From the NCBI GenBank assembly GCA_935421135.1, contig OW285195.1:1736001-1800000 (forward strand): 64,000 nucleotides of DNA, written 5' to 3'. The first letter of the stretch is position 1. Every line of letters starts with the position of its first letter. The position numbers and the translations under genes are program-made. This stretch comes from Bugulina stolonifera (taxonomy: Eukaryota; Bryozoa; Gymnolaemata; Cheilostomatida; Bugulidae). Shown here piece by piece: positions 11,091-50,668 of this stretch. Below the pieces are notes generated by a model. That model did not search any database. It saw only the letters and a program-made list of their open reading frames with translations, and had not been told where the DNA came from.

Positions 11091-11094
11091 AACA

Positions 11095-11262
11095 ACTCAA
11101 GGAAATCGGATTGATATCAGAGGGAGGGCATCGAATCAACATCGGGTTGACATTGGTATGCATCGGATTGACATCGTGGGGGGCATCAGATTGACATCAG
11201 GGGGGAGGGTGCATCGAGTTGACATCGGTATGCATCGCCGGGCATCGGATTGACATCGAGAG
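11095..11262. repeat. CATCGGATTGACATCG-type degenerate tandem repeat
   Basis: Imperfect 20-30 bp units built around CATCG(G/A)ATTGACATC, ending where the polymerase-like frame begins. The same array is at about 63824-63989. Frames across it are artefacts of the repeat. Confidence 0.8.
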
Positions 11263-11274
11263 AGTTTTTTCAAC

Positions 11275-23086: not shown

Positions 23087-23299
23087 TGTTAAGTTACGTG
23101 GGTCAGGTATGTTCGTATAAGCAGATAAACACACTTACTTGATAGTTACTAGTAGTGGATGTAGAATAAGAAGTCTCTGAAGGCACGTGTTGTTGATCCA
23201 GCATTCAAGACGTAAGAGACTTCCAATATCTCCACGGCTTCCGGGATTACGTCACTTCCGCAAATCGCCAAACCCGTTGACGTCTAGCATCACATTACA
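23087..23299 (-). repeat. 3' LTR of element A
   Basis: 213 bp. On the plus strand it starts TGTTAAGTTACGTGGGTCAG and ends CATCACATTACA. Identical to the other LTR except A instead of G near 23236. Confidence 0.95.
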
Positions 23300-23454: not shown

Positions 23455-24534
23455 TTAGCCCTTGGACTGTTCCTCTTCCTCCTCGCTGACCTCATCCAGC
23501 AGGTCGCTCAGTCTCTCTCCGGGGCCCGAAGTACCAGTCCCTCCGACCTGCTCACCTGACTCTGCCAAAAGGCTTTCAGGGTCTTGCGTTGTCAGACCAA
23601 GACCTTCCCTCGACTCCTGAGGATCCTCGACGTCCATGGCCGTCTCGGTCGTCCAGGAGGTCCCAGTGTCAGTTTGAACTTCATCCACTGAGAGACCCGT
23701 AGACACCTCAGTGTCAGCCTTAGCTTCATTCACTGAGCTGTTTTCACTTTTACCGTTTTTCTCATTGCTCTTTCCACCACTGCTAGCCTCACTAGCTTTG
23801 TTGGAACTGTCTACTCTGCTGGTTCCACCAGCCGCACCCTGGTCTGCCTTACTAGTGCCCTGGTCCGTGGTGGTAGCCACTACCCGGCGCTTTCTGGCAA
23901 CCTCAATCTCATTGACCGCCTCCATAACTCTCTTGAGAGGGCCCGAGAGGTGTTTAGCCTCTTCTCGATCCTTCAAGAGGTTATTCCTCTCTCTCGTCAA
24001 CTCTGCCAACCTCCTATTATACTCGGCATCGAGTTCATGTTTCCTGGCTTCAAGATCAGCCAACTGGTCATCATAATACCTGGGGGTGGCCAGCTGGCTA
24101 AACCTGGACATGTCGGCCACCATTTCCCTGACACGATCGACCAAGGTTAGACCGGGGTCAATCATCTCGGGAACCTCGTTATGGCATTGGGCCGCTTGAG
24201 CAAACGACCTTTCAGCTCTGGTAGCAGATGATACTGCTGTGCCACCACTGGCCTGGCTTGCCGCCTGGGAGTAAGATTTCCCCTGTTGTGCAGTATAAAC
24301 TTTACTAGTGCTTTCAGTAGCAACACTCTTACCCGTCTGCATCTTTGTAGGACAAGCGATCTGCTTGTGGCCTAGCTGGTGGCAGTAACGGCATCGGGGA
24401 CTAGGGCAGACTGTAGACAGGTGCCCTTTTAACCCACACGCTGTGCAGTTGGCCATTGGACACGACATCGTAGGATGGTCTTCTGATCGGCAGAACGAGC
24501 AGCCGAAGCTGGCCGCCCTCTTCTTTCCAGACAT
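23455..24534 (-). CDS. ORF3 of element A: triple zinc-knuckle coiled-coil protein
   Basis: This 359-residue protein starts MSGKKRAASF and carries three CCHC knuckles in the first 62 residues: CSFCRSEDHPTMSC, CTACGLKGHLSTVC and CRYCHQLGHKQIAC. A Ser/Ala-rich segment (SYSQAASQASGG, SFAQAAQ) follows. Then comes a highly charged coiled coil (about residues 165-225; DLEARKHELDAEYNRRLAEL) and an acidic low-complexity C-terminus ending EEEEEQSKG. It begins 121 bp after the pol stop, in the slot where retroviruses carry env, but has no signal peptide or membrane segment. The knuckles suggest nucleic-acid binding; the role is unknown. Element B has an ORF with the same layout in the same place. Expression would need a spliced or subgenomic RNA, or reinitiation. 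Confidence 0.85.
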   Translation of the reverse strand: MSGKKRAASFGCSFCRSEDHPTMSCPMANCTACGLKGHLSTVCPSPRCRYCHQLGHKQIACPTKMQTGKSVATESTSKVYTAQQGKSYSQAASQASGGTAVSSATRAERSFAQAAQCHNEVPEMIDPGLTLVDRVREMVADMSRFSQLATPRYYDDQLADLEARKHELDAEYNRRLAELTRERNNLLKDREEAKHLSGPLKRVMEAVNEIEVARKRRVVATTTDQGTSKADQGAAGGTSRVDSSNKASEASSGGKSNEKNGKSENSSVNEAKADTEVSTGLSVDEVQTDTGTSWTTETAMDVEDPQESREGLGLTTQDPESLLAESGEQVGGTGTSGPGERLSDLLDEVSEEEEEQSKG

Positions 24535-24655
24535 ACTACAACATAAAGAACAATAAGCAACGCTATAACGTGGTGAACATTTCAGACAAACTACAGTGGA
24601 TAACGAAGCTAATGCGTAATAAACATTTTAGTGTCACTACGTCATAAATACAGTT

Positions 24656-27600
24656 TTAGTAATACTGATAGACGTCCCGATTTGGGCGCTTCACCGTTCT
24701 TCCGTACCTAGTGCGGGTCTCGGGTTCCGATGTTTCTGGTTCTGCAATGGTCTGGGGTTCGGTCAGGTCTGGGGGTTCTTTAGTACCTCCAGAGGTTTGA
24801 GTCCCGGTGGAGGTTTCCCCACTAGTAGGGGCATTTTCTTCCGTTCTCTGCTGGCTTTCTGCTTCGAGATACTGGTTATGGCTAGCCACAAGGTCAGTGT
24901 TCTCGTCTTCGGCCTGATTTTCCGGCACTTGTACGTCTGTGTCGGTTTCTAGATGTTCCGCCTCGTTTTCTGAGGCTCTATTTTCTTCAGAGTTTTCGTT
25001 TGGACGGGACATTGTGTTAGCGTTCTGGGCTTCGCTCTCAAGCTCTAGAGCGTCTGCGTCCTCGAGCTCATAGTGAGCTGAGTTCCCAGGAACTTCTTCA
25101 GCATAACCGCCTTCATGAGTCCCCTCTAAGGAGAACAGATGTTTGCGGTTACGTCTAACTTCACCGTCTCCCACCTTCACCCAGTAGCTATCTGGGTGCT
25201 GGTCTTTTCTGACGACGAATCCTTCTTTCCCCGTATCCGTCGGGGCTTTGATCCACACTCTTTCCCCTATCGCCAACTCATGTTGGGGTTTTGCTCGGTG
25301 CTTAAGTTCCCATTTCTCCCTTGCTGCCGCTTTCCTTTCGTTTTCTGACCTCTCAAACAGCTCATAGTCCACTGGACTGTTCTCTGGCTTACCCAGGCTG
25401 GACCTAACGGCCCTTGCAAACATCAGTTGACCCGGGGAAAATCCCGACTCCAGAGGGGTCGTTCTGTAAGCTAATAGAGCGGCGTCCTTATCACCCCCTC
25501 CAGACCACAGTCTTTTCACCGTCTCGACTGCTCTCTCTGCGAGGCCATTAGACTGGGGATATCTAGGGCTGCTGGTGTCATGAGTAAACCCCCAGCTGTT
25601 AGAAAAATCCCGCATCCTTTCACTCACAAAGCATCTCCCATTATCGCTACGGAGGTTTGTAGGTACCCCATAGCATGCAAATATTCGTTTTAGTTCCCTA
25701 ACCACGGAATTTGAGGATTGGTCCTCAAGCCTGGCGGTTTCTATCCAACGGCTATAGTAGTCCACAACTATCAGGAAATTCTCTTGATCAAATACAAACA
25801 GGTCTGCGGCAACTTGTTCCCAGGGTCCGTTTGGTAGGGGCTGATCGACTACTGGTTGGTGCCTGACCCCAGCCCGCTTAATACAGACCTCGCATGTGGC
25901 AACAAAATTCTCAATGTCGCTAGATACTGTAGGCCACCAGAACAGCTGACAGGCCCGCCTTCTGCATTTTTCAACGCCTTGATGCCCTTCGTGGCATCTT
26001 CTCAAATATTCTAGTCTGAGGCCTGATGGCACGTACACCTTAGAGCCAAACATTATTATGTTTCCGCAGGCGGTCAGGTTGAATCTGCTGCTGTACAGCT
26101 TTTGCAGTTCTTCGCAGGCCTGTTGATGGTCATAATCGGACCATTCGGACTGTAGCAGCATCAAGCAATTGGAAGCGACCTTGTCCTTGTATAAGGCCGT
26201 TACCAGTTCGGTTTCTCTCACGTCATCTAACAAGCGTTCCCTTATATAGTTACACACATATTGCTCCATTAGGTTGCTGCCTACAATGTCTTCATCCGTG
26301 CACTCCATATCTATTAGTCTACTAAGTAGGTCGGCTATATACATTTTTGATCCTGGGGTATGGAAGAATCCATATCCGTATCTCATTAACCTTAATTTGA
26401 ATCGTTGTACCCTTAGCGGCAACTTGGATAGATCCTTTTCACCTAGCAGGGCTACCAGCCCCTTGTGATCGGTTTCTAACTCAAATTCTCGGCCTACCAG
26501 ATAGTAATCGAATTTCTCACAGGCCTATGTAAGGGCGAGGGCTTCTTTTTCGATCATCGCATACTTCTGTTCTGCCATGGTCAGCTTCCTGGAAGCATAC
26601 TCTACCGGCTGCCAAGCACCGTATTCATTTTCTTGTAGTAGGACCGCCCCAATGGTGCCTTTACTCGAGTCAGCCGACACCCTATGCCTCCTTGCTAAAT
26701 CAAAACTAGCCAGGATGGGCAATCGGGACATTTCCGCCTTTATTTCGTTGAAGGCGTTTTCCTGACTGTCTCCCCAATACCACTCCGACTTCTGTCTGGT
26801 GACGGAGTTGATCGGGACTGCTAGTGAGGCTAATCGTCTGCTGAACTTACTCAGATAGTTGACCATTCCCATGAACCTTCTAGCCTCCTTCTTGGTGGTA
26901 GGAGGCTTCATGTTTAGGACTGCTTCGACCTTTTTCGGGTCTGGTTTCACTCCTTGAGCACTAATGATATGTCCCAGGAAACTAATTTCATTTCGGGCAA
27001 ATTCACATTTCTGTTTTTTCAGTGTCATCCCTGCCTCTAGGACCCGGTCAAGCACAAGGTGCAACCTCCTCCAGTGCTCGGCCACGTCTTTTCCGAACAC
27101 CAAAATGTCATCCATTAGGCATATCACTCCTTCTAACCCGCACAGGATCTTTTCCATTGACCGCTGAAAGAACTCTGGAGCAGAGGAGATGCCGAAAGGC
27201 ATTCTCTTGAAACAGAATCTTCCCCACGGGGTAATGAAAGTCGTCAACAGCCTACTTTCGGGGTCCAAGCGCACTTGCCAGAACCCAGAGTTGGCATCGA
27301 GCTTGGAAAAGACCCTCCCTTCCGACAGTCTGGCCAACATGTCGCTAACCCTCGGGAGAGGGTAGGTTTCTCTTTTCACACTCTTATTCAGCCTCGTTAA
27401 GTCAACACACATCCTGATGTCCCCGCTTGACTTCAGTGCAATCGTCAAGCCAGAGCACCAGTCTGTTGGTGTTTCCACTCTCTCGATCACTCCCAATTCG
27501 AGCATCTTGTCTATTTCTGCTCTCGCCTTTTCCCTCAAACCCGCAGCTATCGGTCTAGGACTGAATAGCTGGTAAGGGCTAGCGTCGTCTTTCAAGGAGA

Positions 27601-28003
27601 TCACAAAAATGTCGAGCATGGAGCCCAACCCGGAGAACAGTTTTGGGTACTCCTCCAAAGGGTCAAAAGCTTTGGTTCTAATGCGGTTCACAACTCTTAT
27701 AAGACCGAGTTCTTCAATTTCTTTAATGCCTAGGAGGTTCCGAGACACTCCTTTTACTACGGAAGCAACACACCTGGTAGACTTCGCCGAGCTGGTCAAA
27801 GCGATTGGCGTCTCTCCTAACTGTTCTAGCGTGTTGCCCCCTGCCCCAACCAGGACTCGCCTGGGCGGATTCAGTCGCGTGTTCAAGATCTTGAATGATG
27901 ATTCCATTAAGACTGTCACTTGGGTCCCCGTGTCTAGAGCGAACACGAGGTTCACTCCGTTTACTTGCAGCGTCACTTTGTACTCAAGGCCTCTATCATA
28001 TAG
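24656..28003 (-). CDS. pol: Pol polyprotein of element A (one internal stop)
   Basis: In the same frame as gag, after one UGA. The protease has FALDTGTQVTVL (catalytic DTG). Reverse transcriptase has FSKLDANSGFWQV and CLMDDILVFG (catalytic DD). RNase H has an IETDHK-like core region near 26480, then the integrase zinc finger (HEGHQG … CEVCIK) and the DDE core (AADLFVF, SDNGRCF, and a Glu in NGLAERAVE). A chromodomain-free C-terminus follows, with IGERVWIKAPTD and RNRKHLFSL, then an acidic tail ending in GRTVKRPNRD. A TAG at 26525-26527 falls between RT and RNase H, where element B has Trp. Everything else is open over more than 1100 codons, so loss of function is recent or the base is an error. 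Confidence 0.93.
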
Positions 28004-28006
28004 TCA
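28001..28006 (-). promoter_or_regulatory. Putative readthrough stop UGA-CUA between gag and pol, element A
   Basis: On the minus strand gag ends …CAA TGA CTA and the protease frame continues with no shift. UGA followed by CUA is an established leaky termination context in viral and cellular genes. Element B has TGA CTA G at the same junction (40492-40497). Readthrough itself is inferred. Confidence 0.7.
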
Positions 28007-29224
28007 TTGAGAATCGGCCATCCTGACTCTCCGGTATGGGGTGTGGCCAGGGCTCTGATCCCGGGATCTAAGGGCCTGGCCCGTGTTTCTCGAGCAGTCC
28101 CTGAGGACATGGCCCCGTTCACCGCAGTTTCTACAAACTATGTCAGGGCAGTTTCTAGCCAGGTGCCCTTCTCTTCCACACTCGTAACATTTAGGCCTGG
28201 CCTCTCGGTACTCGTTCCTACTGCGCTGCCTATCTTCGTCTCTCCGCCTAGGCCAGAGGAACTGGCTGCGGTCTGCATGTCCATATCTACCCACTCTTCT
28301 ATCGTTTCCTCTTTGCTCCTGTTGGGGCGAGTGACTGTAGTCCCTGTATCCCCGATAGCTATCTCGAAACGACTGCCCGCTGTCGTTTCTACTTCGGGTT
28401 CTAGTGGTATAGTACCGGTCTCTGCTGGCACTGCTCCTTCTATCATCTCTACCATTGCTACTACCACTACTCCTGTCTCTCGAATAGTCTCGTGACCTAC
28501 GCTGTTCGCCCATTGAGTCACTGTATCTTCCCCTAGAGGGGCTTCTAAACCTATCGCTTACTTCAGCTACCTCCTGCTTAACCGCTGCCGTAGGTTCGAC
28601 AGGGTTCTCTAATCGCCTGGCTGCTTCCGACGCCTTAGACCTAGATTTTAAAGTCTGTCCCAATAGTTCCCATGTTAAAGCATTGTTAGCCATTAACTCC
28701 TTGCGCAGAGCTGAGTCTCTGAGACCGTTGACTGCGAGGGTGAGGCAGAACAGCTCCCTCGACCTAGTCAATGCTGCATTGACATTTGCTTCTGCTGCCT
28801 GCTCAAACGCCCCACAATCCCGACTCAACCGCTCCACTCTAAGCAAGTAGTCTCTGGGGTCTTCTCCATTACCTTGCCTCACGACTACAAGTTTTTGCAT
28901 CCTAACAAAAACGGCCTCTTCCCGTTCATAATGGTCTTTCAGCGAAGCTAATACATTTGTATAAGTGGAAGTAGCATCTAGACCCTTTATTCCCTTTGAG
29001 CGGAGTGCCTCTCGGCCTTCCCTGCCTATCGCTTTCAATAGCGCCAGCAATTTACATCTAGGGGTAAATGCATCTACGCTTTCACCCTCTACCACTTTCT
29101 TCCCTGACTCTACTATTTTTAATTCGATAGCTATTTGAAATTCTTCTAACCACATTTGAAATGATCCCGAAACATCATTAGGATCAATAGCTAGGTTGGG
29201 CCATGCTGTGGGGGCTTTGGCCAT
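28004..29224 (-). CDS. gag: Gag polyprotein of element A
   Basis: I place the start at ATG 29224 (MAKAPTAW), because element B aligns from its MAAAAGVD start; upstream in-frame codons are unsupported leader. The capsid-like region includes MWLEEFQIAIEL and DYLLRVERLSRDC. An Arg/Ser-rich stretch resembling an RS domain follows (YSDSMGEQRRSRDYSRD). Two CCHC knuckles come next: CYECGREGHLARNC and CRNCGERGHVLRDC. The frame ends in a UGA immediately followed by CUA, beyond which protease continues in the same frame. About 406 residues, normal for Ty3/gypsy Gag. Confidence 0.92.
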   Translation of the reverse strand: MAKAPTAWPNLAIDPNDVSGSFQMWLEEFQIAIELKIVESGKKVVEGESVDAFTPRCKLLALLKAIGREGREALRSKGIKGLDATSTYTNVLASLKDHYEREEAVFVRMQKLVVVRQGNGEDPRDYLLRVERLSRDCGAFEQAAEANVNAALTRSRELFCLTLAVNGLRDSALRKELMANNALTWELLGQTLKSRSKASEAARRLENPVEPTAAVKQEVAEVSDRFRSPSRGRYSDSMGEQRRSRDYSRDRSSGSSNGRDDRRSSASRDRYYTTRTRSRNDSGQSFRDSYRGYRDYSHSPQQEQRGNDRRVGRYGHADRSQFLWPRRRDEDRQRSRNEYREARPKCYECGREGHLARNCPDIVCRNCGERGHVLRDCSRNTGQALRSRDQSPGHTPYRRVRMADSQ

Positions 29225-29569
29225 GGTTAGTATAACTGTCACTGGGTTATACCACGACAGCGTACAAGTAAATCTCCTCACTCACTAGTTACCTCAAGAC
29301 TCTTAGAACTCACTACTCAAGACTCAACCCAATTGACTCACTTAACCCAAGTCTCAGTAACTCAATTTTAATTTATTCCCTATTAACTCAAGACTCTATA
29401 ACTCAATTAACTCTATAACCCTATTAACTCAAGACTCTATAACTCAATTAACTCAACTTTATTCACTCCCTTGTTATCACAAAATTATTCTTGAAGCACA
29501 GAATGGAAATTCTGAAATCTCCAAGACAAAGGCTCTTACAATCTTGCGACTACCCCACCCGTGGTACCA
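29225..29569 (-). other. Leader of element A with PBS-like site
   Basis: The coding-strand 5' LTR is followed directly by TGGTACCACGGGTGGGG, a PBS position starting TGG. The leader then holds a degenerate AACTCAA/CTCTATAACTC repeat (about 29285-29465). I cannot assign the primer tRNA. Confidence 0.65.
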
Positions 29570-29782
29570 TGTTAAGTTACGTGGGTCAGGTATGTTCGTA
29601 TAAGCAGATAAACACACTTACTTGATAGTTACTAGTAGTGGATGTAGAATAAGAAGTCTCTGAAGGCACGTGTTGTTGATCCAGCATTCAAGACGTAAGA
29701 GACTTCCAATATCTCCGCGGCTTCCGGGATTACGTCACTTCCGCAAATCGCCAAACCCGTTGACGTCTAGCATCACATTACA
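29570..29782 (-). repeat. 5' LTR of element A
   Basis: 213 bp with the same ends as the LTR at 23087. It is followed by the target duplication GACCT. Confidence 0.95.
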
Positions 29783-29787
29783 GACCT

Positions 29788-31150
29788 CGTAGACGTATGG
29801 CTAGGAACATCAGTAAGTTTTGGAGTAGGATTTGGACTCTGTTACTGTTAAGGACTAGTCACACGGGCACAAAAGTGCCAACGAAACGTGAAACGACAAC
29901 TCCAACTTATTCCTACCAAAACGACAGGCTGGTCACACGGTTGACGATAACAAATTTTTTCGGTGACTGAGATCAACAGAATCGAGCGTTACATTCTATG
30001 CGGTCCTGTTACGAAACAATAACAATACAACTTCCGCTATTAAGTACATGATTGTAGTTGCAAAAGACCAAGACTTTTTCCGGATATATTAAATATAATC
30101 TACTGAGCTAATCTGCATATTGAATAAAAAGCTCTCTTTTTACATTCTCCTTTCGGAATGGAATGGGTTTCGTTTCACATGGTTCTCATTTCGGCAACCA
30201 AATAAGCTACACAAAATGGTTCATTTATTATCACTTTCATTTATTTCACCGCTTTCCAAACTAGCATCCTTCCAAACTAGCATCGATCATTAAATTTTAT
30301 TTTGCATCTTTCTTATAATATTAAGTTTTATATGAAAATTCTATCATCTCTAATAGCTTATCACTTGTTACATTATCACTGTTGTCTATCACTTTTCATT
30401 ATCGCTCTAGTCATTTCAATTCATTAGATTATACATTCTATTCTATTCTTCCCTCCCTCCCCTGGTTACTTGTGTGTTTTATTCAGCGAACTCAAAAAGT
30501 AGGATGTACATATATTAATATTTAAAAAAAATTTTTCATATGAATAATATAAATGTTATGCAGGTTGTTGCATATAAATAGTGACAATTAGTATATTTAA
30601 GAGTTGTCCATTCTTGCGCACTAGATAGGACAGGTATATATAGGAGAGGAGTACCTACACAGTAGAGTAGTCTCAGTAGAGAGATAGATAGATAGATACC
30701 TAGAGTAGACTGTGAAAATGAGGCATGGAGAGACAGCAGTATAGGGGATTTTGGGGTGACCTTGGCAAGGTCGTGTGCAAAATTTTTGTGCTCTTCTGTG
30801 ATTGGTTGAAATCGGAAATACCGCCTTGTGATTGGTTGAAAACAGGGGTCAATGAGTGCGTGTCTGTATAGAAGTGCACTGACTATACTACTGACATCGA
30901 TAACATATACTAGATATTATATGACAACAAGGCCGTAAGAGATAAGGGTTGACAGATAGGCTACATGCATGCCATACACTAATAAATAGCCAATATTCAA
31001 GGGAAAATCTACTATACAAGTAGACTTAGTTCTCAGCCATAACTATATATATTAATAACAGGGCTAATGACAGCTGCACTAGACAGAACATTTTGACTTA
31101 TTTTGGCATATTATACAATATATATTAATTTAGGTGTAACGGATTAGAGT
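29788..31150. other. Unassigned flank downstream of element A
   Basis: The first 100 bp or so may continue the interrupted gag-side sequence of element C. At about 29855 a stretch CTAGTCACACGGGCAC resembles Harbinger-type ends, but no partner was found. Microsatellite-like GATAGATAGATA lies near 30690. No gene is supported. Confidence 0.4.
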
Positions 31151-33200
31151 GAAAACAGCACAAGCTTGGATAGTCACTAATAGACAGCATAAATTATACT
31201 TTCATATAATACTATTACACAGAGTAGTAAATTATTAAGGACATAACAAATTATGATAGTCAACATGTTGGTATGTTGACTAATAACAGTATCTAATTTT
31301 TTTACTTTATCATTTGTAATAATTGTAAGAACACTAAGTGTCAATAAGTTCACAGACTTTATGAAACAGCCATATGCAATTTGTGTGCAATATGTAGACA
31401 GCGGCATTATCAGTTGACATCTATATGGTGGAATAGACATCCATGATACAGGCTAACGATAGCACTGGAAATTACATAGATGAATACTAATAATGACAGT
31501 TCCTTTATCTTGCAACAGTGGTTGGGTTTCAATTCTATGTTGTAGATATACATTAGAAGGACGAGGTCAATGTGCTGATGGAATTCCCAAAAAATGGATG
31601 ACTGCCAAGCTACAAGGAAAATACACTAAACCAATACCAATAGATTATAAGAAATGAAGATAATACAAGCAAGAAGCAATCTGATGAAATCATTACAATA
31701 TGCTAGGAAAGGAATGCTACATGAAACATATATATATGAGTGCATCATTATTGCACCTTGTTGTTGACTGAATGGGAATACAAAAATCCCAAGTATATGA
31801 GGAATAACATAGGAAATATTATATACCTTCCTATGATATGGATTGCTGTTGACCAAGACAATACACATAGGTGTTGGGAAACCCAGGAAAGAGTATATAA
31901 GAAGAAGAGAAAACAATAAGAATAGAGAGCACCTCCAAGGACACATAGAGAGCACATAGAGAGAGAGAGAGAGAGCTCTCATATAGAGCACCTCCAAGGA
32001 AGACACAGACTACATACAAGGAGGACACTATGAGGACATTTCATATAGAGTAAATGCTAAGTGCTCATAATTTTTAAGTATTAATTTTTTTTTTCTGGTG
32101 AAGATATTCAGGAACACAGACTCTCTGTAAGTTTATATATATATTTATATTCCCTTTTATAAAGGAGGCTGATAGACTTGTATCAGTTATAGCAGAGTGT
32201 TTGCTTTATAGTCAAGATTGACTAAGAGATAATTTTTTTTTTGGCAATTATATTATGTACGCAGCAAGTACAGACACTGATAATTGGTTTTTGATCGCAA
32301 ATAGGATTCAGCACATTGAACAATTATTTTGAACACATATTGAGGATTCAGATTCACTGCGTGACTTTCATTGAACTATTGATTTGGAGAATTCGATTGA
32401 ACGAATATTTTTCCAGTGAGAAATTAGTATACATTTCCACTGAGGTGTTATAGTACATATACACTCTGAGGTAGTTTAAATATAACAATTCTTAAACCTC
32501 AAATTGGCCTGCGAAGTGATTGATTTACCAGGTGAATAATTCATAACGTACCTGATACACAGCTCTCTTGAAAGAGATATACTTAAATTGCAGTTGGCTT
32601 GATAATACCTGTTGATAGGGTAACTCATAGAACACATAGATTCTCCAGGAGAGGAAGTCCCAATTCTGTCACTCGGATTATTGTATTCTACAACATAGAG
32701 AGATTACAATTGTATGTCCGCGAGAGGAAATAAATATATTGAGTGCATATGTCCTGAGTGCTACCATTACATTACACATAGAACCTAGAACCAAAGTACA
32801 CTTGTTACATAAATTAATTGATCGCATATAGGAGGTTATACACACACATATAATATTGAACCAAAGAGTCATTGTCAGAAGTTATCTTCTCTCAATAGAG
32901 GTATAATTGGCGTGAGAAGACAACTATCAGTTAGTGAGACAGACATTACATGAGAACCAAAGTTATCTTTTCTTAATTTATTGGAGGTTAACAGGAGAAG
33001 ATAATTCCAAATTACACGGTACATTGCACAAACTATTGAATACAAACACAACCAGTCTATATATTATATATATCACCTAGAACCAGTAGTGTACTAGCAT
33101 ACTTAGTATACGGATTACGTGTATACAATATATATCATAGTACAATATATAACACAATATATACATACATATAAAATCTTGAATTTCCCTCGTGACACAT
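31150..33200. repeat. Left arm of large imperfect inverted repeat
   Basis: This sequence is inverted, with indels and roughly 10-15 percent divergence, at 33650-35465 continuing at 43265-43385. Clear anchors include the block at 32690-33000 (CTATGTTGTAGAATACAATA on the opposite strand), which pairs with 33870-34190, and TTTCCCTCGTGACA at 33184, which pairs with TGTCACGAGGGAAA at 33653. Weaker similarity may continue out to about 30960. Contains a GAGAGAGAGAGCTCTC microsatellite near 31960-31985. Confidence 0.85.
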
Positions 33201-33650
33201 GTGTAATTTACAAATTTATTGGCTATTTCAGTGAATCACGTGCCTACATAATATCTGTATATACAAGTATAGTAATGTTAGTAATGCTGGTCCTATATGA
33301 ATTTATCGGCTATCAAAGCCGCCCGGACCCTTTAACTTTATTTATAAGGGAACGTGAACGCATAAACCATAGACCTGGGTAGTAGATATATAGTTATAGT
33401 AGTGATTATACTTTATTGATTGTAAATTCTCAAAGTAAGTAATGGTTAGTAAAAATATTCTATTAACTGTAAAACCTGAGAGTTCTAACGCCTAGTGATT
33501 CAGATTTTGAGATTGTAATTAGTAGAAGCGCCAATTTGAGTGTTGTTAGCACAATAAATTGTAATGAGACTGATTTGGATGCCTAATCGCTAGTAATTAA
33601 CGCTAACATCAACATGGATAACGTATGTAGAATAGGTAAATATTCAGAGT
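33200..33650. other. Spacer of the inverted repeat
   Basis: About 450 bp between the two arms. Short frames only. A GCCGCCCGGACCC segment near 33318 stands out from the AT-rich background. No known domain. Confidence 0.5.
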
Positions 33651-33783
33651 TCTGTCACGAGGGAAATTTTATAGAATTTTTACGTATGTGATTGTGATTG
33701 TGTATGTTGTAATATGTGATGATGTAATATGTAATGCTAGTATACTTATATTAAGTATGCTATTACACTAATGTTTCTATGTG

Positions 33784-33815
<32 letters not shown>

Positions 33816-35465
33816 GTTGTGTTTGTATTCAATGGTTTGTGCAATGTACTGTGTAATTTGTAATTATCTTCTCCTGTTAACCTCCAATAAATTTAAGAGA
33901 AGATAACTTTGGTTCTCATGTAATTTCTGTCTCACTAATTGATAGTTGTCTTCTCACGCCAATTATATCTCTATTGAGAGAAGATAACTTTTGACAATGA
34001 CTCTTTGGTTCAATATTATGTGTGTATACCTCCTATATTCAATCAACTAATTTATGTATACAAGTGTACTTTGGTTCTAGGTTCTATGTGTAAGGTAATG
34101 GTAGCACTCAGGACGTATGCACTCAATATATTTATTTCCTCTCGTGGACATACAAATGTACTCTCTCTATGTTGTAGAGTATAATAATCCGAGTGACAGA
34201 ATTGGGACTACCTCCCCTGGAGAATCTATGTGTTCTATGTGTTACCCTATCGACAGGTATTTATCAAGCCAACTGCAATTCAAGTATATCTCTTTCAAGA
34301 GAGCTGTGTATCAGGTACGTTATGAATTATTCACCTGGTAAATCAATCACTTCGCAGGCCAATTCGAGGTTTAAAAATTGTTATATTTAAACTACCTCAA
34401 AGTGTATATGTACTATAACACCTCAGTGGAAATGTATACTATTTTCTCACTGGAAAAATATTCGTTCAATCGAATTCTCCGAATCAATAGTTCAATGAAA
34501 GTCACTCAGTGATTCTGAATCCTCAATATGAGTTCAAATTAATTGTTCAATGTGCTGAATCCCGTTTGCGATCAAAAACCAATTATCAGTGTTTGTAATT
34601 GCTGCGCACAATAAGTAATTGTCTTACTAAAAAATAATCTCCAATCTGTCAGTTTTAAAAATAATCATTCAATCTCTGATTATAGCAGCTACAATAATTG
34701 TCAGTCTGCCTCCTTATATAAAGGGAATATATCATATGTATAGACTTACACTGAGTCTGTGTTTCAGAGAGAATATTGGCACAATAAAAATTATTAATCA
34801 TCAATGGTACACTTGAGCACTGTGTAATTACTCTCTCTATTTTAATGTCATCATTATATCCAGTATGTCCTTGTCTGGGTCGTCATCTTGTGCTCTCTCT
34901 CTCTCTCTGCTCTCTCAATGTGCTCTCTGTGAGAGCTCCCACTCTCCTCTCTCAATGTGCTCTCTGTGGGAGCTCCCACCCTGCTCTCTCAATGTGCTCT
35001 GCTTGTGCTCTCAAAAAGCTCTCCTTATATACCCTTCTCCTGGGTTTTCCATGTCAGCAGCAATCGATATTATAGGAGGATGTATACTATTTCTTAAGCC
35101 TTACATCATATTTTGGGATTTTTGATTTCCCATTTTAGTCAGCAAACAAGTTGTAATCTATGAGTCACTCATATCTATGTTTCATACAGCATTCCCTGGA
35201 TTGCTTCATGTTTGTGTTATGTATGTCATCATCTCCTATAAACTCGAGTCATTAGTCTAGTGTGTTTATCTTTCAGCATGGCAGTTAACCATTCCGGGAA
35301 TTCCATTAGTTCTGTGACCTCATCCTTCAAACGTATACCAACTAACGCTGTAAAGAGAAAGAGTCTCTGCATACTAACCATAATGTGTATATGAATGTTC
35401 TAGAAGTTTGTGCACTTATTGACACATAGTGTTCTTACAAGAATTTCAAAAATTATGACACTAAT
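33650..35465. repeat. Right arm of large imperfect inverted repeat (first part)
   Basis: Reverse complement of the left arm. It is interrupted at 35466 by retrotransposon B and resumes at 43265. A (TA)n run at 33785-33812 and a CTCTCAATGTGCTCT repeat at about 34900-35020 lie inside it. Confidence 0.85.
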
Positions 35466-35669
35466 TGTTGAATAGTCAGGTTCGTAATATACTTAGCGTA
35501 GTTAGGTACGTCTTCACTCACCGAAGTTCATGAAGATAAGGGCTGAATAGTCTTCCTAATCCTCTCGGCTTGTAGCGTAGTCCTTCGTCGTCCGGTTGGC
35601 CAATCAGCTCCGACCTTTAGCGTAGTCTCTTACGAGACGCTTTGGGCAGTCGTAATCCACTATATAACA
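35466..35669 (-). repeat. 3' LTR of element B
   Basis: 204 bp, starting TGTTGAATAGTCAGGTTCG and ending CACTATATAACA on the plus strand. Intact, and serves as the empty-site reference for the MITE in the other LTR. Confidence 0.95.
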
Positions 35670-35957
35670 TGCCCCCTTCTCTCGGTCGGGTCTCCCCGTT
35701 TCCTGTAATATACAGATGCGAGTATACACGCAACACATAAACATTACACTCGTGGCCAACATCAGGAGGACCCTGAGTGTCTTGTACTAAGGGCCGTAGT
35801 GCCAGCGTATGGCCCTTCTCACCACTCCCCAGTGGTAGCTTCAAGGATGCTCTCAGATCGAAAGGACTAGCCTTCTGGTGCGTCCCTTCGTTTCATCATC
35901 GAGTTGCTGCAGGTAGGGAACCTGTCAGCCGCTATAAGGCCCTCCCGGCCTTATCCG

Positions 35958-37134
35958 TCACCACCGACTTCTCCAGAGTCCGTGGCTGAGGTGCAAAGGC
36001 CCTGCCCTTCGTCCTCCTCGCTGCCGCATAAAAGTGTCGCTGCTCCCAGCAGGGCTGACACTTCTCATTGTGGTGCGTTCAAGCCTGGAAACCAGACTCG
36101 ACTCACTCCCTGAGCGATGGGCTTCCCAGAGAGACTCCATCTCTGTTAAGTTGTCCTCGACAACATCCCCTCCATGGGCAGAGACAAGGGACCCTTCCCT
36201 TACTGCTGGTGCTTCGCTCCGATGCACCATTTCTCGTTGAGCCTGGGGCTCCTCTTCTGCCGGGGCAGAGCCGCATTCTTGTGCACCCTGCACTGTCTCT
36301 GCGGGTTTGGTCTCCAGGGGAGACTCCACCCTCTCTCGAGTACCAGAAGAGTTCTCGGACTCCGCACTGGTACTTGGTCTTACTGGTGTTACAGGAGCTG
36401 TAGCAACACCAGACGTGGAACCTTGGGTGAACTGCCTGGCAGCCAGTTCTAGGTTCCTGATGGCTTCCCTTACCGGTTCACCATCATCGTACTCTTTCTG
36501 AAGAGCAGCTCTCTCTCTAGCTATCTCACTCAGTCCGAGTTCATATTGGCGCCGAAGTGCCTCTTCTCTTTCACCAAGAGCCGTACTTCTCCTCGAGAAG
36601 TCGTCAGTAGTCATGGCAGAACTACTGCGGATTCCACTCAGGAAGGTGGAAACTTGCGCTAAGAGAAAAGAGCTAGCACTCTTCCCTTTGCCGCTAACCT
36701 TCTGTGCGTAGGACACAGAGGGTTCTACCCCCGACGCTTTGGGTGCTGGCCCCTCAGCGTCTGCCGGGCTAGAAGAGGGGTGCTTCCTCTTCTTGCTATT
36801 GGAGTAGCTAGCTCCTCCGACAGGACATGACCTCATGACATGTCCGCGCTCTCCACACCAGGTGCAAATCACTACCTCGCAGCTGGCAGCGTAGTGTCCC
36901 CATTCGTTGCACTTCCTGCAGACGAATCCGGGGCAGTCCTTAGCTAAGTGGTCCCTTAGCCTTGCGCAATGGTTGCACCATTTTCCGCCTTGCTTGCCAT
37001 AGGCCTTCCGACCCTTGCCGGGTCCGCCTTTCCCCCCCCTTGCCGCTCCCATCGGCAGGGGGACGCGCGCCACCGCCTCCACCAGGCGGCTGACGACCAG
37101 GAGGTTGCCCTCCCCCGCTCGCTACCTCCGTCAT
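35958..37134 (-). CDS. ORF3 of element B: triple zinc-knuckle coiled-coil protein
   Basis: The frame from 37082 down to the stop at 35958 encodes three knuckles (CNHCARLRDHLAKDC, CRKCNEWGHYAASC, CTWCGERGHVMRSC). A basic KKRKH stretch follows, then a SYAQKVSG segment matching the SYSQ/SFAQ segment of element A, and a charged coiled coil (GEREEALRRQYELGLSEIAR). The C-terminus is long and Ser/Glu-rich. The likely start is ATG at 37134, 62 bp after the pol stop. Its first part is in a different frame, with the switch at a run of eight G (plus-strand C run at 37031-37038), so there is an indel there or an assembly error. The shared layout with element A is the main support for this being a real gene. 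Confidence 0.78.
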
Positions 37135-37195
37135 CTGCTATAAAGTAACTCTGTAACTCTGTGATATCTCCAGAAACCTGTAACAACAATAAAAT

Positions 37196-40100
37196 TTATT
37201 GATAGTATACAATATTAGTTTCCTTTCTTTTCTTAACGGTTCTTCCGGAGCGTGTTTTAACCACGTTGTCCTTCGTTGGTTTAAACAACGTAGAACCACT
37301 CCCCTGCCCCTCGGTAATGTCAGGGGGCTCAGGCTCAACCGGGAGATCGGCTGGTGAGGCTGGGGATGGAGTCCCCGAAGGGCCTGCTATAGGCTCACCA
37401 TCAGGGTGGCCACTTGTCTCACTAGGGGCCTGGTCACACACAGTATGGTTAGCAAGGTCACTAGGAAAAGCGTTAGTATCCTGTTCGACATCGTTAGCGT
37501 TAGCACTAGAAGCTGGGGTTACGATAGAGTTATCACCAGAAATGTGTTCACTCCACTCTGGCATATCCTCATCCGAAGATGGAGGCTTGCCGTAGTTAGT
37601 ATCGTAGGGTTCAAACATAATAAATAGGTGTTTTCTATTCCTACGTACTTGACTATCCCCTATCTCTACCCAATAGCTGTGAGGCGTGTTGTCCTTTCGG
37701 ACCACCACTCCTCGATTACCTGGATCAGTAGGGGCTTTAACCCAAACAACATCCCCTATTTCCAATTTAGGTAAAAGGGAAGTACCTTTCCTGTTATCAA
37801 ACTTAGATTTAAATTTTCTGCGTTTAATAGTCTCTTTACATTCAAATGCTTCATAATCAACATCACTGAGGTAGGGGTCCCTAGGTTATTCCTAATGGTC
37901 CTACCAAACATTAATTCACTCGGTGAATACCCTGTGGACAATGGTGTAGTCCTATATACAAGAAGAGCACTATGTTTATCATTAGTTTTCTCCCATAACC
38001 GTTTAATTGTTTTGACAGCACTTTCTGCTAACCCATTAGATTGGGATAGCGAGGGCTGCTCGTGACTAACGTAAAGCCGTGTAAGGAAGCATAATTTCTA
38101 AATGCATGACTAGCAAAGCACCGTTCATTATCTGAACGAAACACTTTAGGCATCCCAAAGCATGAGAATACCCCCTGTAGGGTCTCGATTATCGAGTCTG
38201 ATGAATGAGAGGCAACAGGTTTGGCCTCGATCCACCTAGAATAGTAATCGATAACAACAATGTACGTTTGATTACGGAATATAAATAAGTCAGCCCCTAT
38301 CACCTCCCATGGACCACTGGGCATAGCTGCCAGTGTTAGTGGTTGGTGTTTGACTTCTCTATGCATAATACATATATTACATCTCTCTACATGATATGTA
38401 ATATCGTTATACAGCCCAGGCCACCAAAAATGGCGTTGTGCCCGTCTGTAACTCTTAGAAACACCTTGGTGTCCCTCGTGGCACCTTTCCAGGTACTCTC
38501 TCCTTAATGCTAAAGGTACATACATTCTAGAATTATAGAATACTATTCCGTTATAGATAGATAGCCTATCTCTGCTAGGATATATTGTAAGTAACTCCTC
38601 ATTAGTGATTTTCTTACGTTTAGGCCACCTGTCACTAATATATTCTACCAGTAACTGACAGGCGGGGTCCTGTAACAATACTTTACGTATTTCCTCCTCT
38701 CTACAATCTACGTAGGGTGAGGAGGCTAAGACAGAGCCTATAAACATTTCTGTCTCGTTAGATTTTATTAAATCTACTGTACTATAAGTAGGATTATTGG
38801 GTCTACTTAAAGTATCTGCTAAGTACATTTCTGTACCAGGCGTGTGGAAAATGACATAATCATACCTCATTAACCTCATCTTAAAACGTTGTACCCTAAT
38901 AGGTAAATCAGATAAATCTTTTTCACCTAAGATGGATATTAATGATTTGTGATCAGTTTCGATCTCAAATCGCCTACCTACTAAATAGTAGTCAAACTTC
39001 TCACATGCCCAAGTTATGGCTAGAGCTTCCTTCTCTACCATAGCATATTTTACTTCGGCATCCGTCATTTTGCGTGAAGCATACTCCACGGGTCGGCCAT
39101 TGCCTTCCTCGTCGAGTTGCAGTAAAACTGCCCCTAACGCATTTTTGCTTGCGTCTGCTGAAACACGGTGCCTTTTGTTTAAGTCAAAAGGGCACAGGAT
39201 AGGTGACTTAGTCATCTCCTCTTTTATTTGGTCAAAGGCTTCCTGTTGGGGTGGACCCCACAGCCATTCCGCTTTAGACCCCGAGACTGCGTATATAGGT
39301 ATACTCAGTCCTGCTAATTTGTCACTGAATTTACTAAGATAATTTGTCATCCCAGTAAATCGACGTGCCTCCGATTTATTTTGAGGAGGTTGCATCTCTA
39401 AAATCGCTTTGATTTTATCTGGGTCTGGTTTGACTCCGGTGGAGCTTACCAGATGCCCAAGAAACTTAATCTCATTAACACCGAATTCGCATTTTTCCTT
39501 TTTCAGTGTTAACCCTGCTTTCTCTAATTGTAAGAGTACCTTTCTAAGACGTTGCCAATGTTCATTGGCGGTCTTACCAAAAACCAAGATATCATCCATT
39601 AAACAGATGACACCTGGTAAACCTACTAATATTTTTTCCATAGCACTCTGAAAATATTCAGGTGCCGACGAAATGCCAAAGGGCATGCGATTGAAGCAAA
39701 ACCTTCCCCAAGGAGTCACAAAAGTAGTGAGTAATCTACTCTTGGGTTCCAGTTTCACTTGCCAAAATCCCGAATTTGCATCGAGTTTCGAGAACATCTT
39801 ACAACTAGATAGTTGACTAAGCATGTCAGAAATACGTGGTAGCGGGTATACTGCACGCGCTACACATTTGTTTAGATTTGTTAGATCTATGCACATTCTG
39901 ATCTTGCCCCCTGCTTTGGGAGCAATTGTGAGACCAGAGCACCAATCAGTGGGTTCTTCCACTCTGTCTATAATGCCATCCCGCAACATGTTGTCAAGTT
40001 CCGTTTTGGCCTTATCTCTTAAACCTGCTGCATGCTATAGAACGAGGTGCAAATAAGCATTTGGGTTCTGCATTAGGTCTAAGCTTGATCTTAAATATAC

Positions 40101-40494: not shown

Positions 40495-40497
40495 TCA
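40489..40497 (-). promoter_or_regulatory. Putative readthrough stop UGA-CUA between gag and pol, element B
   Basis: The coding strand reads AGC TGA CTA GAG, with protease continuing in frame. It has the same stop and same following codon as element A, despite different bases on both sides. Confidence 0.72.
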
Positions 40498-41682
40498 GCT
40501 AGGAAATCTGACTCTGTGCACTCTAGAGGGGCTCCTGTAGTCCCTTCTAGATTCCCTCCGTTGCATGGGAGGACTTTGGGGGTCTTTAGGGTGGCGTTCG
40601 CTCCGCCTGGACCGACAATCCCTGGAGATGTGGCCTTTCTTATTACATACATAACAGGTCACCGTAGGGCACTCCCTTGTGTGGTGTCCTTGCTTACTAC
40701 AGTGATAGCAACGAGAGTCTTCTTGTCTATTCCTCCTACTAGGGGAGTATCTAGAATAACTGTCATTGCTAGAATCTCGACGTTGGTAGGATTCCTTACT
40801 CTCATAACTTCTACTTCTAGGTCTATACTTAGAATACCTCCTAGAATTGTAACGACTGTAGGAGCCGTTGCTAGTACTACTATCTCTACTAGTACTTCTA
40901 GGTCTATACTTATGTCTAGATCTGCGTCTAGTTACATTACATACAGATGATTCATCTGATTCGTCAGTATTATATTTGCTTACATTACGGTAGCTCTGTT
41001 TGTCAGAGTCTACCTTGCACACTTCTTGTTTAATGGGTCTATCGGCCCTAGAAGTCTGTTCTACGTTAGACTGCCTGGAGAGGAGGTCATCCTCTTTTTT
41101 AGCAGTATCTCTCGCTTTGAGCACTTTCACCAGGTCTTCCCAGGCGAGTTCAGCTCGCTGGTAAAGTAATTGCCTGAGCGAGCTTTCGCGTAAACCGTTA
41201 ACTGCGACTGAAACAGCGAGGCGCAGCCTATGTACTTCAGCTTGTTCGCCAAAATCCAAATCCCTACTCAATCTTTCTACCCTGAGTAGGTACGTATGAA
41301 ATTCTTCATCACATGCTTGTGATGCAGTAATGAATCTATTATGCCTTAAAAAGAAGCTATCTTTTTGCTCAAAATGATCTTTTAATATTTTAAGACCTCT
41401 ATCGTAGGCATCGTCTGCGTTGTCTTTCAGATCGAAGCCTGAGGCAGTGAGGACAGCTTTGCCATCTCTCCCTGCCGCGCTGAGTAGGGCCAGTAGTTTA
41501 GTCCTACCCCTAAACCTATTCACTCGTGCCTCATTGGGTCCTTCTTTACCCATATTAAAGGTGGCTACTTCCACCGCTATTTCGAAATCTGTTAGCCATT
41601 CAGACCAACAGCCACTTACATCACTCCCTTCAATCTTTAGTTTAGGGAAGCTCGTTAAGTCTACGCCTGCAGCAGCAGCCAT
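40495..41682 (-). CDS. gag: Gag polyprotein of element B
   Basis: A 395-residue open frame starting MAAAAGVDLTSFPKL. The capsid-like region has CWSEWLTDFEIAVEV and TYLLRVERLSRDLDF, aligning with element A. An Arg/Ser/Tyr-rich region (YSRYNSRRYSKYRPRSRS) precedes two CCHC knuckles, CYHCSKQGHHTREC and CYVCNKKGHISRDC. The frame ends VRFPS then UGA CUA G, and protease follows in the same frame. Fully open, unlike pol. Confidence 0.92.
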   Translation of the reverse strand: MAAAAGVDLTSFPKLKIEGSDVSGCWSEWLTDFEIAVEVATFNMGKEGPNEARVNRFRGRTKLLALLSAAGRDGKAVLTASGFDLKDNADDAYDRGLKILKDHFEQKDSFFLRHNRFITASQACDEEFHTYLLRVERLSRDLDFGEQAEVHRLRLAVSVAVNGLRESSLRQLLYQRAELAWEDLVKVLKARDTAKKEDDLLSRQSNVEQTSRADRPIKQEVCKVDSDKQSYRNVSKYNTDESDESSVCNVTRRRSRHKYRPRSTSRDSSTSNGSYSRYNSRRYSKYRPRSRSYESKESYQRRDSSNDSYSRYSPSRRNRQEDSRCYHCSKQGHHTRECPTVTCYVCNKKGHISRDCRSRRSERHPKDPQSPPMQRRESRRDYRSPSRVHRVRFPS

Positions 41683-42241
41683 TTTAGCTCTGCTGTGCTA
41701 CACTCTCTCACACTCTAACTTTACTCTGACTCTAACTCTACTCTAACTCTAACACTTACTTTAACTCTAACACTACTCTCACTCTATCTCTAACACTACT
41801 CTAACTCTAACACTTACTTTAACTCTAGCACTACTCTCACTCTATCTCTAACACTACTCTAACTCTAACACTGCTCTAACTCTAACCTCTCCACTCACGT
41901 AGCCACGCTAAACTGACGTGACTACGCTACTGAAACACTTTACTCTCACGTAGCCACGGTACTCTCGTGTGGCTACGCTACAAAAACTCTCTACTCTCTC
42001 TACTCTACACTCACGTAGTCACGTTACATTCACGTAACTACGCTACCCCTCACGTAGTGCAGTCAAGGACTAGTGAGTCAATAAGTCCTTAAGGCTACAC
42101 TACGCTACTCACTCACAGTCACTCCTCCTTGAGTGACTGCTACTCCTCCCCCGAAGGGTGCTCTTGATTATCTCAGTTGTAACCAGTAATACCTTTCAGT
42201 TTAACAATAATAATAAAAAAATTATCTTGCCAACTGTGCCA
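41683..42241 (-). other. Leader of element B with PBS and simple repeats
   Basis: The coding-strand LTR is followed by TGGCACAGTTGGCAAGAT as PBS. The leader contains two repeat families: a CACGTAG(C/T)CACG type (about 41895-42060) and an ACTCTAACTCTAACAC type (about 41700-41890). It has no coding capacity. Confidence 0.75.
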
Positions 42242-43264
42242 TGTTGAATAGTCAGGTTCGTAATATACTTAGCGTAGTTAGGTACGTCTTCACTCACCGA
42301 AGTTCATGAAGATAAAGGGTATGCTACACGGACGCAAAATTTATGCGAATCGCATAAATTTTGCGTTTTGCGATTACTGATGTTTAACTTTTGCGAAATC
42401 GCATGTTTATTGCATGTTATAAATTTTTAACGTTTCAAAATGCGAATCGAGTGTTGATTGGCTACAGCTAACTTAGATGCTTTGACAAGGTGCTAGCAGT
42501 TGAGTTTAGCTTTTAGGATAATAAAATAAAACCATTGTATAAATTGAAATTGATTTAATAACTTAATTTAAATTTCAATTTGTGCTATATTCTACTGACC
42601 GCAAAATGGACGAAAGCTGTATAGCTATGTTGTTTAAATTAATCCAACAAAAGACCAGCACTGTGGGAAAAGTTCAATCCTTATTATAAACACGAGGTAA
42701 ATAAATTAAATCAACAGTCAAGCTATCGTGTGCATCTTAAACCATAAATTAATTCAAGTCAAGCCTCTCAGGTGCTCGTTACGTATAGGAAACATTTAGT
42801 TGAACTTAGTTTCCACCGAGCAGAACTAATTTAACCTGCGTGTTCCGATATATTGCTAAAATAGTGGAGGTTTTAATTTAAGCTACAATATGGAGGGGCT
42901 AATCCTAAAGAGATTGAATGTAAATGTATCACAACCCCCAATTATTATTTTGTAGGTTCACAGGCTACATTAATTGCTTAGATTCATCTACTCTTGCCTT
43001 CAGTTGAATTAATGAGTAGACAACTTCTTTTGTTTACAATAAAACGCAACTTCTGTGTAGCACCTAACAACGTTTTCCGTTTTTTAAACTGGCGATATTC
43101 GCAGAAGTTGTGCGTCCATGTAGCATACCCTTTAGGGCTGAATAGTCTTCCTAATCCTCTCGGCTTGTAGCGTGGTCCTTCGTCGTCCGGTTGGCCAATC
43201 AGCTCCGACCTTTAGCGTAGTCTCTTACGAGACGCTTTGGGCAGTCGTAATCCACTATATAACA
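42242..43264 (-). repeat. 5' LTR of element B, split by a MITE
   Basis: LTR parts are 42242-42315 and 43135-43264, which together match the 204-bp LTR at 35466 with one substitution. Confidence 0.94.
42316..43131. mobile_element. PIF/Harbinger-like MITE inside an LTR (816 bp)
   Basis: Both ends read AGGGTATGCTACA followed by C or T and GGACGCA as inverted repeats. The intact LTR at 35466 shows the uninterrupted site (GATAAGGGCTG). Three bases are added: TAA on the left (42313-42315) and TTA on the right (43132-43134), fitting a TWA duplication with one change. TIRs beginning (A)GGG with a 3-bp TWA duplication are typical of PIF/Harbinger. No transposase. GCGAATCGCATAAA-type palindromes lie near both ends. 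Confidence 0.88.
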
Positions 43265-50392: not shown

Positions 50393-50668
50393 CATACTCT
50401 GATATTACAACGTGCAAGCTTTATAACTAGCAATCTGCAGCAATAACAATTTATTTTATCTAATAACATAGCGCTAGGTTAGGCTGCCTGGTAATATAAT
50501 ATTTTCTGGTAGCAAGGGAGAGTCCCCTTCAAATCAAGCATTAATCACACCTGAATGCTTAAGCTGTGTTCGGATGTTAAAAGCAGTCTTATATGAACTA
50601 GTACAGTTCCGAAAACACCTAATATGTACAACTATCCTGGGTTTTGGTCCTTTTTCATCAACAAACAG

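What the first reader, a model, noticed from the sequence alone, without database searches (positions are those of the whole stretch)
23455..37134. Conserved third ORF (triple zinc knuckle plus coiled coil) in two different Ty3/gypsy families
Elements A (23455-24534) and B (35958-37134) are well diverged in LTRs and proteins, yet both place after integrase an ORF with the same order of parts. These are three CCHC knuckles, a basic or Ser-rich link with SYxQ motifs, a charged coiled coil with (E/R)ALRRQYELGLSEIARER or HELDAEYNRRLAELTRER, and a low-complexity acidic tail. It sits in the env position but has no signal peptide or membrane segment. Shared architecture between families implies selection on an accessory protein, perhaps a second nucleic-acid chaperone or a trafficking factor. 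I know of no named family with this layout.
Basis: partly seen in the sequence, partly recalled or inferred. Interest (0 to 1): 0.78.

Follow-up and report, generated by a model that had tools for sequence, protein, structure and literature searches.

The report
Gypsy retrotransposons' conserved third gene
Two related but long-separated jumping elements each carry, in the place where retroviruses keep their envelope gene, an extra gene for a nucleic-acid-binding-type protein without any obvious membrane segment, probably a helper that handles the element's own RNA.

Summary
Both elements are minus-strand Ty3/gypsy insertions with near-identical LTRs, 5-bp target duplications, gag, pol, then ORF3. 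A's ORF3 is 24534-23455 (359 aa). Both have three CCHC knuckles, a link, two predicted helices and a disordered tail. A and B are sister lineages (RT-RNase H 68% identical, gag 33%, ORF3 22%). Their ORF3s resemble each other beyond the knuckles (0 of 1995 full and 1 of 2000 windowed shuffles score as high), favouring one ancestral gene. Searches found two more relatives (P0001, P0002), best conserved in the knuckles and, for P0001, the helices; their genomic neighbours are unknown. Splice-acceptor-like sites precede ORF3 in both. Best reading: an RNA-binding accessory protein from a spliced mRNA, working like Cer1 CERV or Rev; the mechanism is inferred. A second nucleocapsid-like chaperone is the main rival. 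New variant of a known kind. Not tested: other genomic copies (genome search did not complete) and host species.

The parts
23087..23299 (-). Element A 3' LTR (TG..CA, 213 bp)
   Evidence: 212 of 213 identical to 29570-29782; TSD GACCT at 23082-23086 and 29783-29787
23455..24534 (-). Element A ORF3: three CCHC knuckles, link, two-helix segment, acidic tail (359 aa)
24536..24555 (-). Element A splice-acceptor-like site ending one base before the ORF3 ATG
   Evidence: rank 3 of 642 scored AGs in the element; a score this high is expected in 8% of 120-nt background stretches
24656..26422 (-). Element A integrase ORF
   Evidence: Pfam Integrase_H2C2, rve
26525..27976 (-). Element A protease-RT-RNase H ORF; the pol frame is interrupted by an in-frame stop at 26525-26527
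   Evidence: Pfam RVT_1, RT_RNaseH_2; protease below its cut-off
28004..29281 (-). Element A gag (two knuckles); ends in TGA CTA with pol following in the same frame
29570..29782 (-). Element A 5' LTR; donor-like CAA|GTAAGTG with last exon base 29622
35466..35669 (-). Element B 3' LTR (204 bp)
   Evidence: 1 mismatch in 77 and 1 in 131 bases against the split 5' LTR; TSD CTAAT
35958..37052 (-). Element B ORF3 from its first in-frame ATG (364 aa); frame open from 37121, GTG at 37082
37178..37197 (-). Element B splice-acceptor-like site in the IN-ORF3 gap
   Evidence: rank 1 of 719 scored AGs; background chance 0.003 per 120 nt
37196..37765 (-). Element B integrase C-terminal part
   Evidence: 34% identical to the A integrase C-terminus over 215 columns; no Pfam match
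38028..39989 (-). Element B RT-RNase H-integrase; pol frame broken near 40032 and between 38028 and about 37870
40495..41682 (-). Element B gag (two knuckles); ends in TGA CTA with pol following in the same frame
42242..43264 (-). Element B 5' LTR, split by an 814-bp insert with inverted ends (42320-43133); donor-like site with last exon base 42298

Best explanation
ORF3 is an accessory gene of one Ty3/gypsy lineage, probably inherited by A and B from a common ancestor and kept by purifying selection. Its protein is a soluble RNA- or single-strand-binding factor: three zinc knuckles grip nucleic acid, the two-helix segment makes it dimerise or oligomerise, and a disordered tail recruits partners. 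It is most likely made from a spliced subgenomic mRNA (donor in the LTR or leader, acceptor just before ORF3) and acts on the element's unspliced genomic RNA, for example by coating it for nuclear export, in the manner of Cer1 CERV or retroviral Rev. Shown: anatomy, sequence similarity, conservation pattern, predicted helices. Inferred: selection (no dN/dS was possible), splicing, RNA binding, oligomerisation, nuclear role.
For: Related ORF3 in A, B, P0001, P0002. Identity of A to P0001: knuckles 2-3 22 of 33, helical segment 62 of 92, link 14 of 52, tail 24 of 86; A to P0002: 25 of 33, 33 of 92, 13 of 50, 18 of 92. Same two-helix layout in A and B. Knuckles match AIR2, LIN28 and retroviral NC chains. 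Acceptor-like sites: B rank 1 of 719, A rank 3 of 642; background P 0.003 and 0.08. Donor-like sites 52 (A) and 56 (B) nt from the LTR 3' end. Basic clusters at the end of the helices: RKRR in A, RKKR in P0001, KRRR in P0002; KKRK in the link of B. Precedents: CERV, a protein from a spliced Cer1 mRNA needed for gRNA export (PMC10309623: abstract, passages and section 9 read); sORF1 of 412, an accessory protein found in a subnuclear compartment (PMC11952523: abstract and section 7 read).
Against: No transcript seen. The splice matrices are generic and recalled. The acceptor of A (P 0.08) and the donor of B (rank 7-8 of 483; P 0.127) are unremarkable alone, and two AGs inside pol of A score above its ORF3 site. 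Basic clusters and NES-like patterns are common by chance. CERV has a possible C4 finger, a predicted multimerising M domain and a G-protein-like domain, none recognised here, so the likeness is of place and expression, not of sequence. P0001 against B alone is weak in the helical part (34 of 1000 windowed, 6 of 1000 full shuffles as high). Triple knuckles fit an NC-like chaperone equally well.
Confidence: 0.4

Rival explanations
1. ORF3 is a second nucleocapsid-like chaperone: born from a copy of the gag NC knuckles fused to a coiled coil, it joins gag in the particle and helps RNA packaging, dimerisation or strand transfer.
For: ORF3 knuckles resemble the NC knuckles of gag (B ORF3 to A gag 50% over 32 aa; A ORF3 to A gag 35% over 52 aa), with the same four-residue spacing between knuckles. 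The four best viral fold matches of B are gag fragments or gags, all weak (E 0.079 or more); those of A are not.
Against: gag already has two knuckles in both elements; ORF3 is a separate late frame with splice-like signals; knuckle likeness is expected between any CCHC proteins.
Confidence: 0.3
2. ORF3 is a transcriptional activator of the LTR, with DNA-binding knuckles and an acidic activation tail.
For: Acidic tail with a short C-terminal motif (DLLDEVS in A, DLLDKVS in P0001) and basic clusters.
Against: Tail of B barely acidic (-5 over 158); CCHC knuckles mostly bind single strands (recalled).
Confidence: 0.12
3. ORF3 is an exapted ORF1-like protein of non-LTR elements, or a captured host CCHC protein, kept for RNP formation or silencing escape.
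For: Knuckle match to AIR2 (E 3.4e-6). Sharing of ORF3 types between retroelement classes is documented in bdelloids (PMC5408684, abstract and part 1 of 2 of Results read). The layout recalls LINE ORF1 proteins (recalled, not tested).
Against: In A and B no Pfam family beyond zf-CCHC reaches its cut-off (for P0001 and P0002 one search shows no scores against cut-offs).
Confidence: 0.13
4. ORF3 is a decayed or chance reading frame without function.
For: Only two copies in the window; ORF3 of B has no ATG until 37052.
Against: Open in both copies while pol is broken in both; relatives at 45% and 34% aligned identity to A; coding-frame codon signal.
Confidence: 0.05

Closest known systems
CERV of Cer1 (Caenorhabditis elegans Ty3/gypsy-like element), PMC10309623 (abstract, passages, section 9 read)
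   Same: A non-envelope accessory protein of a gypsy-like element, without obvious homology outside nematodes, with a helical zipper region; its place in the env position is partly recalled
   Different: CERV exons 1-3 share the gag frame, and it has a possible C4 finger and a G-protein-like domain; ORF3 has three CCHC knuckles and two predicted helices. No sequence comparison was made
Bdelloid rotifer LTR element ORF3s (Vesta, Juno), PMC5408684 (abstract, part of Results read)
   Same: Non-env ORF3 after pol, retained within lineages
   Different: Those described in the part read are GDSL esterases, DEDDy exonucleases or membrane proteins; none is described with knuckles
Retroviral nucleocapsid and gag NC of the same elements
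   Same: CX2CX4HX4C knuckles in tandem
   Different: Three knuckles at the N-terminus of a separate late ORF, followed by helices and a disordered tail
MDG1-group sORF1/sORF2 (412, Stalker2), PMC11952523 (abstract, section 7 read)
   Same: Accessory ORFs of LTR elements without env; sORF1 of 412 is nuclear
   Different: About 110 and 70 aa, upstream of gag; sORF2 is a transmembrane protein; no splicing was seen there
AIR2 / CNBP-type CCHC proteins
   Same: Tandem knuckles (AIR2 E 3.4e-6); CNBP likeness is recalled
   Different: The match covers only the knuckles

Membership tests
Ty3/gypsy (Metaviridae) LTR retrotransposon | LTRs TG..CA with short target duplication | tested here: met
   A GACCT, B CTAAT; LTRs 1 of 213 different in A, at most 2 of 204 in B
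Ty3/gypsy (Metaviridae) LTR retrotransposon | PR-RT-RNH-IN order | tested here: met
   RT, RNase H, integrase above Pfam cut-offs in that order in both; protease in A below cut-off (E 0.001) and matched in B by similarity to A at 40464-40033
Envelope glycoprotein | Signal peptide and transmembrane segment | tested here: not met
   Highest 19-residue Kyte-Doolittle mean 0.64 (A), 0.95 (B); highest 8-residue mean near the N-terminus 1.30 (A), -0.19 (B). A simple hydropathy test, not a trained predictor
CERV | Encoded by a spliced mRNA | tested here: inconclusive
   Acceptor- and donor-like sites only
CERV | Sequence homology to CERV | not tested
   No CERV sequence was fetched
CERV | Needed for nuclear export of genomic RNA | not testable with these tools
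   Needs an experiment
Nucleocapsid-like CCHC protein | CX2CX4HX4C knuckles | tested here: met
   Three in A; three in B, the first with X5; Pfam zf-CCHC in 3 of 4 members at E 1 or better, not listed for A
Nucleocapsid-like CCHC protein | Part of the gag polyprotein | tested here: not met
   Separate ORF after integrase
Nucleocapsid-like CCHC protein | Present in virus-like particles | not testable with these tools
   Needs an experiment

The most novel reading that the evidence does not exclude
A gypsy lineage independently evolved a Rev/CERV-like regulatory system: a dedicated spliced accessory gene, built from nucleocapsid-type zinc knuckles joined to a coiled coil, that controls the fate of its genomic RNA. 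This would be a complex-retrovirus-style expression programme in an env-less retrotransposon, possibly together with gag-pol readthrough at UGA CUA.
Probability: 0.3. Interest if true: 0.7.

Novelty: new variant of a known kind. Interest (0 to 1): 0.5.

Why it matters
Accessory genes have been named as a feature that separates most Retroviridae from Ty3/gypsy elements (PMC2577118, passages read); CERV is a functional exception. A second, structurally different accessory protein in the env position would suggest that complex gene regulation arose repeatedly, and the small intact ORF offers a direct test of what a non-env ORF3 does. It also warns against annotating ORF3 as env by position.

Tried and rejected
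Viral-contig scans with ORF3 A, pol B, integrase A, ORF3 B, the ORF3 alignment and the RT alignment (6 of 8 allowed) and genome-contig scans with the ORF3 and RT alignments gave no confirmed relative. The protein search with ORF3 B alone gave none at E 0.01. P0003 (E 0.033) was dropped as knuckles only. Foldseek: no PDB match for A at E 10 or better (B was not run against PDB); viral library: 10 matches for A (E 0.63 or more) and 31 for B (E 0.079 or more). Rfam: 0 matches in the window at gathering scores. Env was rejected. Host species was not determined.

Literature: the listings (0 papers) show no paper that I could recognise, by title and start of abstract, as describing a triple-knuckle ORF3 in gypsy elements. 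Subscription papers are mostly missing from that library and Repbase reports were not searched.

Full report
Anatomy. Both elements lie on the minus strand. A runs from LTR 29570-29782 (5') to LTR 23087-23299 (3'), with 1 difference in 213 bases and target duplication GACCT. B runs from a 5' LTR at 42242-43264, split by an 814-bp insert, to a 3' LTR at 35466-35669, with target duplication CTAAT. Near-identical LTRs suggest young insertions. Pfam finds zf-CCHC twice in both gags, and RT, RNase H and integrase in order in both pols; in the ORF3s only zf-CCHC in B passes its cut-off, and A has only sub-threshold matches such as ASD2 (E 0.014). Pol is broken in both copies: an in-frame stop at 26525-26527 in A; frame breaks near 40032 and between 38028 and about 37870 in B. 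Assembly error cannot be excluded for these. ORF3 is open in both.

Observation. A ORF3 is as described. Three knuckles in each, a low-complexity tail and the lack of an obvious hydrophobic segment are borne out. The tail of B is only slightly acidic.

Relationship of A and B. By BLASTP, RT-RNase H is 68% identical over 326 aa, the RNase H end plus integrase 44% over 293, the integrase C-terminus 34% over 215, gag 33% over 394 and ORF3 22.5% over 280. They are distinct families of one lineage. ORF3 similarity does not rest on the knuckles alone: the part after the knuckles scores 83, reached by 2 of 1000 windowed and 1 of 1000 full shuffles; the helical part alone scores 63, reached by 2 of 1000 and 0 of 1000. 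P0001 against B is weaker: after the knuckles 23 of 1000 windowed and 0 of 1000 full shuffles, helical part 34 of 1000 and 6 of 1000. A profile of A, P0001 and P0002 gives B 11.7 bits, reached by 0 of the 1995 full shuffles that were reported (2000 made) and by 1 of 2000 windowed shuffles; the E-value that the program itself gives this match is only 0.034. Common descent of B's ORF3 with the rest is thus well supported but not overwhelming; same place after integrase in a sister element adds to it.

Relatives. In a database of about 5.8 billion proteins, ORF3 A found P0001 (E 4.9e-51; the only hit at E 0.01 among 7893 candidates). ORF3 B found none (7994 candidates scored, capped). The three-sequence profile found P0002 (E 5e-42) and the knuckle-only P0003 (E 0.033; 7993 candidates scored, capped). 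P0001 and P0002 begin inside knuckle 1 as called, so only two full knuckles are seen in them. Their contigs could not be read, so linkage to gypsy pol is untested. Identity of A to P0001 is 22 of 33 in knuckles 2-3, 62 of 92 in the helical segment, 14 of 52 in the link and 24 of 86 in the tail; of A to P0002 25 of 33, 33 of 92, 13 of 50 and 18 of 92. This is the pattern of constrained modules joined by free linkers, though the helices are much less conserved in P0002.

Structure. AlphaFold2 on four-sequence alignments gives a short and a long helix in both proteins (A 131-148 and 151-223; B 126-145 and 150-211), with ten-residue pLDDT means up to 98 there; the knuckles are at about 50-70 and the rest is mostly low; pTM 0.26 and 0.25. 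The two jobs used the same four proteins and are not independent. A had no PDB fold match.

Expression. The best-scoring acceptor-like AG of B (1 of 719, inserted segment included) lies in the IN-ORF3 gap at 37178. The third best of A (of 642) ends one base before the ORF3 ATG; the two better ones lie in pol. In non-element window sequence such scores occur by chance in 0.3% and 8% of 120-nt stretches; in gag-pol sense sequence scores of 4.2 or more occur at 2 of 450 AGs (A) and 3 of 379 (B), and of 7.9 or more at none. A donor-like GTRAGTG lies 52 and 56 nt from the LTR 3' end in A (tied rank 2-3 of 400) and B (tied rank 7-8 of 483) (chance 3% and 13% per 210 nt). Together this suggests a spliced ORF3 message, but no RNA was seen and the matrices are generic and recalled.

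Mechanism. Knuckles plus helices plus a disordered tail on a soluble protein fit an RNA-coating factor. CERV shows that a gypsy-like element can use an accessory gene for genomic RNA export: a cerv-specific stop mutant kept nuclear foci of genomic RNA but had none detected in the cytoplasm and lacked GAG (PMC10309623, section 9 read). An NC-like chaperone is the main rival, since ORF3 knuckles resemble those of gag.

Known kinds. Non-env ORF3s in LTR elements are documented in bdelloids (GDSL, DEDDy; PMC5408684, abstract and part 1 of 2 of Results). I recognised no description of a triple-knuckle, coiled-coil ORF3 in the listings of eight searches. I therefore call it a new variant of a known kind.

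Limits. The genome search did not complete (13 tries), so copy number, selection among copies and the host are open.

Noticed in passing
28004-28006 (A) and 40495-40497 (B): In both elements gag and pol share one frame, separated by a single TGA followed by CTA. UGA CUA is reported as the consensus for high stop-codon readthrough in humans, highest with G next (PMC4359377, passages read); B has that G. This suggests gag-pol by readthrough rather than frameshifting.
   Followed up: partly
42320-43133: 814-bp insert with inverted terminal repeats inside the 5' LTR of B, MITE-like.
   Followed up: no
22562-23092 and 29764-29970: Element A sits inside a plus-strand open frame: codons begin at 23087 in the left frame and at 29788 in the right frame, so the frame would run on across the empty site (by arithmetic). 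Host exon or older element unknown.
   Followed up: partly
17974-18930: A different gag-like ORF on the plus strand (zf-CCHC above its cut-off; Retrotrans_gag E 0.0067, below its cut-off); the next plus-strand ORF of 120 aa or more in the list is 22619-23092, of unknown kind.
   Followed up: no
29530-29569 and 42202-42241: Sequences just after the 5' LTRs, the primer-binding-site position, differ between A (TGGTACCACGGG) and B (TGGCACAGTTGG), suggesting different primer tRNAs; that of A resembles a tRNA-Leu 3' end (recalled).
   Followed up: no
1-711, 49437-50393, 52808-54722, 59702-62059: Tandem-repeat arrays with offsets of about 39-43 bases, and long near-identical segments shared by the two ends of the window (5077-8956 with 55222-59141, 96.7%; 9177-11271 with 61902-64000, 98.8%).
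   Followed up: no
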